NCBI GenBank assembly: GCA_016722465.1
Contig: JADKJC010000013.1
Coordinates: forward strand, 310,001-374,000
Origin: Chitinophagaceae bacterium
Lineage (GTDB): Bacteria > Bacteroidota > Bacteroidia > Chitinophagales > Chitinophagaceae
Direction: 5' to 3'
Length of the DNA: 64,000 nucleotides
Within the stretch, counting starts at the first letter, position 1; each line of letters starts with the position of its first letter. This document shows positions 13,671 to 18,689 of this stretch, in pieces. The notes below the pieces were generated by a model, which saw only the letters and a list, made by a program, of their open reading frames with translations, was not told the origin of the DNA and made no database searches. The position numbers and the translations under genes are program-made.

Positions 13671-14010
13671 GGATTTTGAACAGGTATTGAACCTTACTTA
13701 CGGGTAATCAGGTTTTCAACACATATGAACGTAAAGAAGACTCTTTTATTGCTGCAACATCTGTTTTTTATATAATGTGTTTAAGCATAGCAGCTATGCT
13801 TCTGATGGGTTGAAATAGCTGGTTTATATAGAGATAGGACGAAATAGTTCTTTCGGTTTTTCCATTAAAATTCTATATTGTAGTAAATATGGTTGAGTAT
13901 GGCGTATTCTAATCGCCCCAAATTCCTGCGATCCGCTGCTGTTTTACAGGCTCTTCTTTTATATTGAAACGTAAAAAGATGCAGTTGGCATTTTCTACAC
14001 AGGGCTGCCC
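13671..14010. other. Intergenic region with no clear feature
   Basis: About 340 bases upstream of the minus-strand T9SS gene and before the recognisable part of the GMC pseudogene. It should hold the promoter of the T9SS gene. The half nearer the pseudogene may be more of the decayed GMC gene, but I cannot align it with confidence. No RNA gene or intact open frame is visible. Confidence 0.4.
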
Positions 14011-14299
14011 GATGCTGCAGGTTTTAAAAATATCAGTATCCAAAATAAGATGTCATACCCGGTAATACCAATCATGAAATGGGAACGGCGAGGATGGGAA
14101 ATGATCCGAAGACTTCTGTACTCAACAGTTTTAACCAGTTGCATGAAGTACCCAATGTTTTTATTACCGATGGATCTTGTATAACATCGACAACCTTGTC
14201 AATCTATCAATAACCTATAAGGCGCTTACAGCCCGTGCCTGCGGCCATGCAGTAAAAGAATTAAAGAAGATGAATTTACAGGTAGTTGATTTGAAGTGA
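14011..14299 (+). pseudogene. Decayed 3' end of a GMC-family oxidoreductase gene
   Basis: No single open frame exists, but the three plus-strand frames together spell the C-terminus of a glucose-methanol-choline (GMC) FAD oxidoreductase. From 14011 one frame reads [13 protein letters not shown]; from 14049 another reads [20 protein letters not shown] and on through [13 protein letters not shown], which carries the family's HEMGTARMG and TDGS motifs; it meets a stop, and from 14207 a third frame reads [20 protein letters not shown] to a TGA at 14297-14299. The conserved CQNPS between the last two pieces is damaged by more than one change. The N-terminal FAD-binding domain is absent. Because the lesions are multiple and the 5' part is gone, this is a true relic. 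Confidence 0.85.
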
Positions 14300-14353: not shown

Positions 14354-15313
14354 ATGAAACCAGTATTACTTTTTTTTTACTTCCTCATTTTTACTTTTTT
14401 GCCTGTGCAGGCACAGAATACTGTACCAGACACGGTAAAAACGGGTATCTATATCACCAGTATTCATGATATTGATTTCAAGCAAAAGGAATATACCATT
14501 GCACTCTGGCTTTGGTTGAAATACAAGAACAAGGATTTTGATTTTTCAAAAAACCTGGAGATTCCGCAGGCAAAAAGCGTTGAAAAATCTTTTTACACAG
14601 TTGATACAAGTAATGGCAGGGTGTACATGCTGATGAAATTACAGTGTGTAATGAAAGACTCCTGGAAGATCAATAATTTTCCTTTCGATCGCCAAAAATT
14701 AAGATTGTCATTTGAAAACTCACAGTACGATTCCAGGTCGCTGGTATTTGCTATGGATACACTTGGCAATCATTATGATCCCCGTTTTACTTTGAGGGGC
14801 TGGAATATCGACAGCTTTGATATCGCCTGTGGCACCAGGGCCTATGAAACAACATTTGGTGATGAGAGTTTGAGTAAACCACATGTTGAATACAGTGCCT
14901 ACAAAGTTAAAATAGGTATTAAAAGAGATGCCGGGGAACTGTTCTGGAAAATGTTCCTGGGTATGTACGTGGCTTTTTTAATTTCATACATATGTTTTTA
15001 CATTCACGCCGATAATATAGACTCCCGTTTTGGATTGAGTGTAGGTTCTTTGTTTGCTGCCATCGGTAATAAGTATATCATTGATTCCTCATTGCCGGAA
15101 TCCAATTCGCTTACGCTGGTAGATACATTACACGGTATTACATTACTGTTTATATTTCTTATTGTTGCTGCATCTGCTTATGCATTGCGGCTGGTTAAGC
15201 AGGATAAACTAAAAAAGGCCAACAGGTTTGATATGATTACTGCACAGGTATTACTGGGGCTGTATATTATCATAAATTTTTACTGCATTTATACCGCAAC
15301 AAATGGAGGATAA
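14354..15313 (+). CDS. Pentameric ligand-gated ion channel subunit (Cys-loop family, prokaryotic)
   Basis: A 319-residue subunit of a prokaryotic pLGIC (the GLIC/ELIC family). A signal peptide (cleavage near VQAQ, residue 20) is followed by the extracellular beta-sandwich: GIYITSIHDIDFKQKEYTI (31-49), the WLWLKYKNKDF strand, and the family hallmark FPFDRQ at 109-114, which is the Pro-loop. The cysteines that give the eukaryotic family its name are not paired here, as in other bacterial members. Then come four transmembrane helices: M1 about 196-217, M2 about 224-243, M3 about 254-280 and M4 about 294-314, with the SLPESNSLTLVD link before M3. The ligand (proton, amine or other) cannot be predicted. 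It overlaps the next gene by 11 bases. Confidence 0.87.
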   Translation: MKPVLLFFYFLIFTFLPVQAQNTVPDTVKTGIYITSIHDIDFKQKEYTIALWLWLKYKNKDFDFSKNLEIPQAKSVEKSFYTVDTSNGRVYMLMKLQCVMKDSWKINNFPFDRQKLRLSFENSQYDSRSLVFAMDTLGNHYDPRFTLRGWNIDSFDIACGTRAYETTFGDESLSKPHVEYSAYKVKIGIKRDAGELFWKMFLGMYVAFLISYICFYIHADNIDSRFGLSVGSLFAAIGNKYIIDSSLPESNSLTLVDTLHGITLLFIFLIVAASAYALRLVKQDKLKKANRFDMITAQVLLGLYIIINFYCIYTATNGG

Positions 15314-15584
15314 GAAACTATACATGGTGATTGAAAGATTCAGGCCCGGTAAAATAAAAGCACTTTACCAGCGCTTTGAAGAAAGGGGCAGGATGATGCC
15401 GGAAGGAGTGACGTATATCAACAGCTGGATCAATGAAGAAGTGACTGTTTGTTACCAGGTAATGGAAGCAGCGTCGCTGGAAAAATTGAATGAGTGGATC
15501 AGCAACTGGAATGATATGGTGGATTTTGAAATTGTGCCTGTTATTACTTCTGTGCAGGCAAAAGCAAAAGTTTTTTCGATTTAA
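15303..15584 (+). CDS. DUF3303-family small protein
   Basis: A 93-residue protein with the look of DUF3303 (KLYMVIERFRPGKIKALYQRF near the N-terminus and a central INSWINEEVTVCYQVMEA segment), a small dimeric alpha/beta-barrel-like fold. Its function is not known. It starts 11 bases before the end of the ion-channel gene and is read in a different frame, so the two are almost surely co-transcribed and translationally coupled. No signal peptide: it should be cytoplasmic. Confidence 0.82.
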   Translation: MEDKKLYMVIERFRPGKIKALYQRFEERGRMMPEGVTYINSWINEEVTVCYQVMEAASLEKLNEWISNWNDMVDFEIVPVITSVQAKAKVFSI

Positions 15585-15671: not shown

Positions 15672-16187
15672 ATGAAAAAATCCCTGTTCATTGCTTTCTT
15701 CTTAATTTTCGTTGTTGCGATTACAGTTTTTTCTCAAACCTTTGAAGTGCCGGAAGGATATAGCTTTAAGAACAAAGATGATTATGCACAATATGAAAAA
15801 GATGTAGTAGCTGCTTCCAAATGGCTGTTTGCAACATCGCTGGATGAGCAGGAAGTAAAAAGAAAACTGGTGGCCAAATTCGTAGCAGAGTGGTTATTAG
15901 GCTGTCCAACCGTACAGGCAGAAATGTCGCAGGCCATCATGGACTTTGAAAAAAAGAATCCCGGAATGATTGTATTGTACTTTGCCGGCTGCACTTTATA
16001 TGTACTGGAACATGATCATTCAAGAGATACCAGGGCCAAACACAGATTTGCCCTGCAGGCCATGATGGATTTTTACAAAGGGGATAAAGGCATCAGGAGA
16101 GATAAGAAAATGAAGGACCTGATCAAAGAAAACGAAAATGGCAGGTTGGATGAATGGATCCAAAAAAATATTCCATTGCAGGATTGA
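15672..16187 (+). CDS. Exported protein of unknown function (171 aa)
   Basis: A small secreted protein with a signal peptide (MKKSLFIAFFLIFVVAITVFSQ, cleavage at about residue 21). The mature part is largely alpha-helical, with two conserved-looking cysteines (LLGCPTV and FAGCTLYV) and a charged C-terminus. I recognise no domain. It is separated by 87 bases from the DUF3303 gene and converges on the methyltransferase gene with an 18-base gap. Codon use is like its neighbours. Confidence 0.75.
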   Translation: MKKSLFIAFFLIFVVAITVFSQTFEVPEGYSFKNKDDYAQYEKDVVAASKWLFATSLDEQEVKRKLVAKFVAEWLLGCPTVQAEMSQAIMDFEKKNPGMIVLYFAGCTLYVLEHDHSRDTRAKHRFALQAMMDFYKGDKGIRRDKKMKDLIKENENGRLDEWIQKNIPLQD

Positions 16188-16852: not shown

Positions 16853-18689
16853 TTATAGCTCAAACTCCCACACTGTGCGGTAAGTGCCGTATTGTTCTAT
16901 ATAAGTTAAAAACGAATTGTAGAAATTATCAGCTCCAATGGTGGCACTGTCGCCAATTACAAACAGTTGCTCCCTGGCCCTTGTAATAGCTACATTCATC
17001 CGGCGGTAATCTTTTAAAAACCAATGTCACCATCATCATTGCTTCTCACCAACGAAAGAATGATCACTTCTTTTTCCTGCCCCTGGAAACTGTCGATAGT
17101 GCTGATACGAAGTTGCCCGGGAAATAATTCTTTTGCAGCAGCCACCTGCCCGGCATATGGCGAAATGAAAGCGGTGGTTAATGGATCAAGCATTTCTGTC
17201 TCCATCAGTTTTTGAACGATCTGTAATTCGCCTTCGTTCTGCAGGCTCATGCCATCTTTTCCATGCACTTCATTATACCCCGAGCCGGCGGTATCAATAA
17301 AAGAAATGTGTTTGCCAGTATTGCTGAGATGTGGGGCTGATTTCAACAAACCGTTATAAAAATAATGGCTGCTGAAGCCTGCAATGGATTCCTTCATGCG
17401 GTACTGCACATTCAGCAGGAAAATATTCTTTACGGTGGCAATGGCTGCTTCAAGGATAGATCGGTTTAGCCCAAGCTTTGCCGCTTCATTGCTCAGCACT
17501 GTAGGCGGGAGTTGGAAGTGGTCACCTGCCAACACATATTTTTGGGCCAAAGGAAAATACACCAGGCCAGCGGCTCAATGCATTGGCCGGCTTCGTCAAT
17601 CAGCAGCGTATTGAATTTGATATTATTGATGGCGGCATCATACAAACCAATGGGTGTGCCTAAAATCACATCAGCCTCTGTAAATAATTTATCTTCATTA
17701 TAAGCCTGCAGTTTTTTGATGTCAGCCCTGATGCTTTTTACTTCTTTGAATAAAAGATTGCGCTGTTCTCTTTCCGCTTTGCCAAAACTGCGTTTGTATT
17801 TTAACGCCATCCTACGGAATTCTTCAGCCCTTATTTTCAATTCCCTTATTTCTTTCTGTTGCCTGCTGTTGGCCAGTTTTCCTTCTGGTGTATGAGAGAA
17901 AATACCTTCATCTGTTTTGGTGGCATTGCCAACTCTTAAAATATTGATGCCCTGCACCAGCAAACCTTTGGCAATATTATCCACCGCAGTATTACTCGGT
18001 GCAGATACCAGTACTTTTTCTCCCGCTTTTATCAGTTGATGAATCGCTTCTATTAAAGTGGTGGTTTTGCCGGTGCCCGGCGGCCCATGTACTATGGTGA
18101 TGTCGTCATTTTGTACAATTGCTTTTACTGCCAGCTGCTGGCTCTCATTCAGCCGGCTATTGCTGAACGTTAGTGATACAGAACTTTGATAGGATTGATT
18201 AATTTCTTTTGTCGTATCACCATGCAGGGATTGAAACAGGCCGTACAGCTCCCTGCGGCTTTCCAGTTGGTCCAACACCTTTTTCATGATGCTGGTGGTG
18301 CGCTGGTCAGGTGCCAGTTTAATGCCTACACCATCATCTTCTATCCAGTCGGGAAAGTCGGGAGCAAACAAACGGAACTCACCAGTCTTGCCATCCAGGC
18401 TAAGCAGTACCCCTTTAACCGGGTCTTCTCCTGCACAAAAACATTCAATGGCGGCGCCGTCTTTAAACATATTCGCTTCAGGCGGAAAAGCAAGCCGGAA
18501 ATTTATTTCTGGATAATCTGCATAGCCAAAATTTTTTTTAGTAACGATGATTGGGTGTAATGCCAGCCCCTCAGCTTTTAAAGATTTCAACGTATGCTGC
18601 TGATCTAAACTATATCGTTGCACCTGTTCCTTTTCTTCCAGGTCAATGCATTTGATTAAGGTTTGAATATGTGGATTGGTCACCGGCAT
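16853..18689 (-). CDS. SF1 helicase of the UPF1/IGHMBP2 type, split by two frameshifts
   Basis: Rejoined, this is a roughly 612-residue superfamily 1 DNA/RNA helicase like IGHMBP2, Upf1 and Sen1. The N-terminal piece has Walker A GPPGTGKT at 202-209 and motif II LLIDEAGQC; the second frame has motif III GDHFQLPPT and motif V ISTIDSFQGQEKEVIILSL; the third frame has motif VI RRMNVAITRAREQL and ends at a TAA at 16853-16855. The breaks are a C run of two at 17562-17563 (three expected) and an A run of five at 17016-17020 (six expected). Since all motifs are intact outside the breaks, I think the gene is functional and the sequence is wrong. It lies upstream of the methyltransferase gene. Confidence 0.88.

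What the first reader, a model, noticed from the sequence alone, without database searches (positions are those of the whole stretch)
14354..15584. Bacterial Cys-loop-type ligand-gated channel coupled to a DUF3303 gene
A clear pLGIC subunit (FPFDRQ Pro-loop, four helices) overlaps a DUF3303 gene by 11 bases. The tight overlap suggests the small protein may act with or regulate the channel, or share its cue. Bacterial pLGICs are few and their ligands mostly unknown; a DUF3303 partner would be new as far as I know.
Basis: partly seen in the sequence, partly recalled or inferred. Interest (0 to 1): 0.72.

Follow-up and report, generated by a model that had tools for sequence, protein, structure and literature searches.

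The report
Bacterial nerve-receptor-like channel with small neighbour
A bacterium carries a gene for a channel of the same family as our nerve receptors, directly followed by a small gene of unknown function; the channel is real and common in its relatives, but the small gene seems to accompany it only in one narrow branch, so the two are probably just switched on together rather than working as one machine.

Summary
14354-15313(+) encodes a 319-aa Cys-less pentameric ligand-gated ion channel (pLGIC) subunit and 15303-15584(+) a DUF3303 protein; the ORFs overlap by 11 bases. The overlap depends on the start codon: the usual start Met is Lys here, and the next Met lies 10 nt past the channel's stop. 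The channel belongs to a strongly conserved Bacteroidota family (3521 relatives; 105 positions at least 98% identical in 200 sequences). The pairing is not general: in 80 channel loci no relative of the window's DUF3303 was found, and none of 46 channel matches in 244 genomes adjoins a PF11746 match. Nor does it look unique: four metagenomic relatives have both genes on contigs of identical length, one with a frame-overlap signature, all inside one 27-member clade; their DNA could not be read. A clade member, L001, keeps channel and neighbours without DUF3303. DUF3303 is predicted as a ferredoxin-like, probably cytosolic protein. I read this as lineage-specific co-transcription; a dedicated channel partner is possible but unproven.

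The parts
14354..15313 (+). Cys-less pLGIC subunit, 319 aa: N-terminal signal-like segment (about 1-21), periplasmic beta domain (about 25-192), Pro-loop FPFDRQ (109-114), M1 194-215, M2 222-246, M3 255-282, M4 286-316
   Evidence: PF02931 E 1.3e-9; PDB sequence matches to GLIC; AF2 model and Foldseek to GlyR and GLIC; 3521 relatives. Signal segment by eye only
15017..15091 (+). M2 pore helix (residues 222-246). Register 0'=R225: -2' D, 2' G, 6' G, 9' F, 13' G, 16' Y, 19' D
   Evidence: Gap-free alignment to the GlyR M2 of 4x5t from R0' to LP22'-23' (prime numbers by my own count); in 200 family sequences R0', G6', F9', G13', N14', K15', Y16' invariant, G2' 185 of 200, D-2' 191 of 200
15303..15584 (+). 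DUF3303 protein, 93 aa if started at 15303, 86 aa if started at 15324; predicted beta-alpha-beta-beta-alpha-beta-alpha fold
15303..15313 (+). 11-base ORF overlap (from the ATG at 15303 to the channel's TAA at 15311-15313), second ORF in the +1 frame
   Evidence: sequence; same +1 geometry inferred for P0016/P0164
15672..16187 (+). downstream neighbour, 171 aa, unknown function; not claimed as part of a system, but its relative follows the channel in the DUF3303-less syntenic relative L001
   Evidence: 64.7% identical over 150 residues in L001; no Pfam match over cut-off

Best explanation
The locus is a stand-alone bacterial pLGIC gene of a conserved Bacteroidota family, with a DUF3303 gene placed directly behind it in one sub-clade. 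Shown by sequence: channel subunit, DUF3303, tight spacing. Inferred from family knowledge: five subunits form an inner-membrane pore whose periplasmic domain binds an unknown ligand and opens the M2 pore, probably to cations (acidic -2' and 19' rings). Inferred: DUF3303 sits in the cytosol as a small ferredoxin-like, perhaps dimeric-barrel protein, is co-transcribed with the channel and perhaps translated by coupling at the stop codon. The arrangement most likely arose once in the ancestor of a 27-member clade and was lost at least in L001's line. It gives shared expression, without evidence of physical partnership.
For: Identity of both proteins. 0 of 80 named channel loci carry a tblastn relative (E up to 1e-3) of the window's DUF3303 in the fetched flanks; 77 of the 80 have at least 400 nt downstream of the channel. 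0 of 46 channel matches in 244 family genomes adjoins one of 22 PF11746 matches; the nearest on one contig are about 13 kb (G080) and 47 kb (G033) away. DUF3303 in 17 of 394 genomes: none with a channel in the fetched flanks of up to about 1.5 kb. L001 has channel, 169-aa gene, methyltransferase, helicase and GNAT gene in the window's order without DUF3303, with one extra 220-aa ORF in between. P0164's N-terminus MGVRIK can be read in the +1 frame of the C-terminus of P0016; at this depth 4 of 120 channel C-termini fit, all from the same clade. All five paired channels fall in a 27-tip clade, support 0.999, spread over both its halves.
Against: The shared-contig evidence is indirect: no DNA of those four contigs could be read, and for three of them only presence on the same contig, not adjacency, is inferred. 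Retention on both sides of the clade is somewhat more than an idle neighbour would be expected to show. Genomes with PF11746 carry the channel more often than others (9 of 21 against 34 of 223, Fisher p 0.004; 5 of 13 against 38 of 231, p 0.058, for strong matches; not corrected for kinship). Co-transcription, ion selectivity and ligand are not shown.
Confidence: 0.68

Rival explanations
1. DUF3303 is a lineage-specific functional partner: a cytosolic small-molecule-binding or metabolic protein that acts on the channel's cue or modulates it from the cytosolic side.
For: Tight, possibly translationally coupled arrangement; inferred retention in at least five members of one clade; mild co-occurrence excess.
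Against: L001 keeps the channel without DUF3303, and no PF11746 match was found in its genome G001. None of the 18 DUF3303 genes in the 19 fetched stretches lies next to a channel; a dCMP deaminase-like gene (name recalled) occurs in 6 of the 19. The channel has almost no cytosolic part: links of 6 (M1-M2) and 3 (M3-M4) residues in the model.
Confidence: 0.2
2. The adjacency is a recent accident of the window's genome (insertion) or an assembly accident, with no retention anywhere.
For: No adjacency in any DNA that could be read outside the window.
Against: Four contig-length identities with shared sources and one frame-compatible N-terminus.
Confidence: 0.08
3. The 319-aa protein is not a working channel but a sensor or structural pLGIC-fold protein.
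For: M2 is unusual: Gly at 2', 6' and 13', Phe 9', Tyr 16'; among the 60 PDB rows shown none is a close relative.
Against: All four helices, R0' and the M2-M3 LP motif are kept; Phe 9' occurs in 13% of the pLGIC set of PMC4795631 (passage read).
Confidence: 0.1

Closest known systems
GLIC (Gloeobacter proton-gated channel) and other prokaryotic pLGICs
   Same: Cys-less Pro-loop, beta extracellular domain, four helices, short cytosolic loops, LP after M2; among the best PDB relatives by sequence and by fold
   Different: 18-19% identical in the structural alignments shown; different M2 lining (G2', G6', F9', G13', Y16'; GLIC lining recalled); ligand unknown
Animal glycine/GABA-A receptors
   Same: Overall fold (TM by query length 0.76-0.81 to GlyR chains) and M2 register
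   Different: No Cys-loop disulphide positions, no intracellular domain, acidic -2' residue
Bacterial pLGIC operons with PBP-II or Cache genes (Tasneem et al. 2004, PMC549065; passages read)
   Same: A neighbouring gene beside a bacterial pLGIC gene was used there to infer cooperation
   Different: Those partners are ligand-binding sensor domains; DUF3303 here has, by eye, no export signal and belongs to another fold
DUF3303 (PF11746); SCO4226-like, ABM and NIPSNAP proteins
   Same: PF11746 membership; weak PF14026 similarity (17.9 bits, cut-off 28.5); fold resemblance
   Different: Sequence identity 20% or less in the rows shown; no paper on DUF3303 found

Membership tests
[quoted passage not shown]
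   PF02931 38.2 bits, cut-off 26; beta strands 26-192
[quoted passage not shown]
   FPFDRQ at 109-114; F109, P110, F111, D112 and Q114 at 98% or more in 200 sequences
[quoted passage not shown]
   Helices; R0', F9', P23' invariant in 200 sequences; register
[quoted passage not shown]
   Only a monomer was modelled
Cys-loop receptors (sensu stricto) | Two cysteines flanking the loop | tested here: not met
   D102 and L116 at the positions 7 residues before and after F109 (positions recalled); sequence
DUF3303 (PF11746) | Score over the curated cut-off across the domain | tested here: met
   92.9 bits, cut-off 21.2, profile positions 2-87 of 92
Dimeric alpha-beta barrel superfamily | Ferredoxin-like fold assembled as a dimeric barrel | tested here: inconclusive
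Conserved pLGIC-DUF3303 operon | Adjacency kept across the channel family | tested here: not met
   0 of 80 loci; 0 of 46 channel matches in 244 genomes
Conserved pLGIC-DUF3303 operon | Adjacency kept within the window's own clade | tested here: inconclusive
   5 of 27 clade members (the window and four others) by shared contig length, a lower bound because only the best 120 DUF3303 proteins were listed; the one with readable DNA besides the window, L001 (P0006), lacks it

The most novel reading that the evidence does not exclude
In one Bacteroidota clade a pLGIC has acquired a dedicated cytosolic partner, DUF3303, co-translated from an overlapping gene, that senses or processes a small molecule linked to the channel's cue. 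It would be a cytosolic operon partner of a bacterial pLGIC of a kind not described in the passages and listings I saw.
Probability: 0.15. Interest if true: 0.6.

Novelty: new member of a known kind. Interest (0 to 1): 0.36.

Why it matters
No biological role is known for unicellular pLGICs (PMC4795631, passages). This family is unusually conserved (105 of 319 positions at 98% or more in 200 sequences) and occurs in named Mucilaginibacter, Pedobacter, Chitinophaga and Niastella species, so a knockout in a laboratory isolate could address the role of a bacterial nerve-receptor relative. The invariant loop C and pore residues suggest one common ligand and gating style. The DUF3303 link is a weaker, clade-limited lead.

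Tried and rejected
Considered and rejected: (1) a family-wide operon: 0 of 80 loci and 0 of 46 channel matches. (2) Another conserved neighbour of the channel: clustering of ORFs around the 80 channels gave antisense shadow ORFs and scattered families in at most 10 loci, besides tandem channel copies in L003 and L011. (3) An 11-base overlap in L055 and a 34-base overlap in L052 looked like parallels, but the small ORFs (86 and 80 aa) resemble no DUF3303 by eye and gave no tblastn hit. (4) Viral origin: 0 loci for either protein in viral contigs. (5) A defence role: no PADLOC match for the pair at E 0.01. (6) A Bacteroidota -33/-7 promoter pattern (recalled consensus): 0 exact matches in the window where 5.2 were expected by chance, so uninformative. 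(7) PF02931 for genome searches: it found the channel in 1 of 6 genomes that hold a channel locus, so I used alignment A1. (8) A last protein search with five DUF3303 sequences: its 55 newly listed proteins share no contig length with the 120 channels. (9) Changing the centre of the family draw: the rows listed were all genomes already seen; 92 of 117 were not listed. (10) Three short contig-length coincidences (1032, 1187, 1316 bp) have different sources and were dropped as chance.

The first DUF3303 list shows only the best 120 of 659, so pairs in more distant relatives would be missed. In one search at most 9 first-look candidates per genome were scored.

Full report
Observation. ORF 14354-15313(+) encodes 319 aa and ORF 15303-15584(+) 93 aa; they share 11 bases. 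The first scores over the cut-off for PF02931 (38.2 bits against 26) and the second for PF11746 DUF3303 (92.9 against 21.2). By sequence the first matches a GLIC-glycine receptor chimaera (E 1.8e-14) and GLIC chains (4.6e-9 to about 1e-7) in the PDB. An AlphaFold2 model made from 34 sequences (mean pLDDT 77, pTM 0.62, so moderate) gives a beta domain and four helices, and Foldseek places it among glycine receptors and GLIC (best E 2.1e-21, TM by query length 0.73-0.81 in the rows shown). It is a pLGIC, but Cys-less: Asp102 and Leu116 stand at the disulphide positions (recalled register), which agrees with the polar and hydrophobic replacements described for bacterial sequences in PMC4795631 (passages read).

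The start of DUF3303. In 28 of 30 aligned rows there is a Met at the column where the window protein has Lys5; the window and P0236 are the exceptions. The window protein therefore starts either upstream, at 15303 (11-base overlap), or at Met8, 15324, 10 nt past the channel's stop codon. In the relative P0016/P0164 the corresponding Met would also lie about 10 nt past the stop (my deduction from the peptides). Tight adjacency is firm; the exact overlap is not.

The channel family. 3521 proteins match at E up to 1e-3. The scan of genome contigs with alignment A1 confirmed 160 stretches, of which the best 80 were returned, in records titled Chitinophagaceae, Chitinophaga, Mucilaginibacter, Pedobacter, Niastella, Bacteroidetes bacterium and the like. 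In 200 sequences (120 proteins and 80 loci, some of them the same gene) 105 of 319 positions are at least 98% identical and 59 are invariant. M2 reads R0' F1' G2' L3' S4' V5' G6' with F9', G13', N14', K15', Y16', and D at -2' in 191 of 200. The M2 register rests on the gap-free alignment to the GlyR M2 of 4x5t. Residues of the beta9-beta10 hairpin, my loop C (Y164, E165, T166, F168, G169, D170, Y180), are at 98% or more, which suggests a common ligand; that is inference. Neighbour clustering gave no conserved partner; tandem copies occur in L003 and L011.

Is the pair conserved? Against: tblastn of the window's DUF3303 finds nothing in any of the 80 channel loci; 77 of these have at least 400 nt downstream of the channel. 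In 244 genomes of the family of L001's genome, the channel is in 43 (46 matches) and PF11746 in 21 (22 matches); 9 genomes have both, none adjacent, and two have them on one contig about 13 and 47 kb apart. A search of 394 family genomes with the DUF3303 protein found 17 genomes, and of the 93 held genomes of the genus two; none of the 17 loci has a channel in its fetched flanks of up to about 1.5 kb. Of the two genus hits, G132 has the channel on another contig, and G268 gave no channel match and none on the 3,120-base contig that holds its DUF3303. In the 19 longer stretches fetched around DUF3303 genes (18 such genes; two stretches are from G080) a channel occurs only at the end of the G080 contig, and a dCMP deaminase-like gene (name recalled from its sequence) occurs in 6.

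For: comparing the contig lengths of the best 120 channel and best 120 DUF3303 proteins gives, besides the window itself, four coincidences with a shared source: 90,235, 18,687, 5,632 and 2,053 bp. Jittered lengths give 0.18 coincidences above 2,040 bp on average and never four in 5000 trials; the 2,040 limit was chosen after seeing the list. Three short coincidences have different sources and fit the chance rate of 1.6. On the 2,053-bp contig the predicted DUF3303 begins MGVRIK, which can be encoded in the +1 frame of the channel's C-terminus NGSAN-stop. Of 120 channel C-termini four fit to this depth: P0016 itself, P0009 and P0010 with the same C-terminus, and P0030 of the same clade; fits to a depth of four residues also occur for other DUF3303 proteins and are not telling. 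In a FastTree of the 120 channels the five paired ones fall in one 27-tip clade (support 0.999) and on both sides of its root (support 0.94 and 0.81). This is not independent of list ranking, because both lists are ordered by similarity to the window. The simplest reading is one origin and some losses.

A natural control. L001 (P0006), a member of that clade and 85% identical in the channel, has the channel, a 169-aa gene 65% identical to window 15672-16187, the methyltransferase, the helicase and the GNAT gene in the same order as the window, with one extra 220-aa ORF, but no DUF3303. No PF11746 match was found in its genome. Channel and neighbourhood therefore persist without it.

Mechanism. 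I commit to this: a homopentameric inner-membrane channel, opened by an unknown periplasmic ligand, probably cation-conducting (acidic -2' and 19' rings), with DUF3303 co-transcribed behind it in one clade. Steps shown: families, fold of the subunit, adjacency in the window. Steps inferred: pentamer, gating, selectivity, co-transcription, pairing in relatives, single origin. A dedicated partnership remains possible (about 0.2). A mild co-occurrence excess (9 of 21 against 34 of 223 genomes, p 0.004; 5 of 13 against 38 of 231 for strong matches, p 0.058) is not corrected for kinship.

Literature. Tasneem et al. 2004 (PMC549065, passages) describe bacterial pLGICs, including Cytophaga hutchinsonii, and gene neighbourhoods with PBP-II or Cache genes. 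Jaiteh et al. 2016 (PMC4795631, passages) report 61 new bacterial genera and no known biological role. Prokaryotic pLGICs lack the intracellular domain (PMC9221113, passages). The searches listed no paper on this Bacteroidota family; only the listed rows were seen.

Noticed in passing
window 13900-14299: Broken remnant of a GMC oxidoreductase C-terminus just upstream of the channel gene: one piece matches PF05199 (E 6.6e-13); a second piece in another frame (14204-14296) gave no match at E 0.01.
   Followed up: partly
window 17014-18689 (-): A helicase that is one ORF of 612 aa in L001 and 632 aa in L135 (G080) is split here into two overlapping ORFs (398 and 182 aa), a frameshift or sequencing error.
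   Followed up: partly
L003:6001-8076, L011:4890-6897: Tandem, diverged copies of the channel gene, which might form mixed pentamers; similar tandem pairs in G118 and G019 may be the same genomes.
   Followed up: no
L135 (G080:C126): A diverged DUF3303 (53% identical) lies directly beside the same helicase family that lies downstream of the window's pair, with a channel gene cut off at the contig end about 13 kb away.
   Followed up: partly
channel family, M2: Gly at pore positions 6' and 13', Phe 9' and Tyr 16' invariant and Gly 2' in 185 of 200 sequences, an unusual pore lining that deserves a structure.
   Followed up: partly
Pfam PF02931: In whole-genome search the PF02931 model found the channel in only 1 of 6 genomes that hold a channel locus, so annotation by this model may under-count the family.
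   Followed up: no
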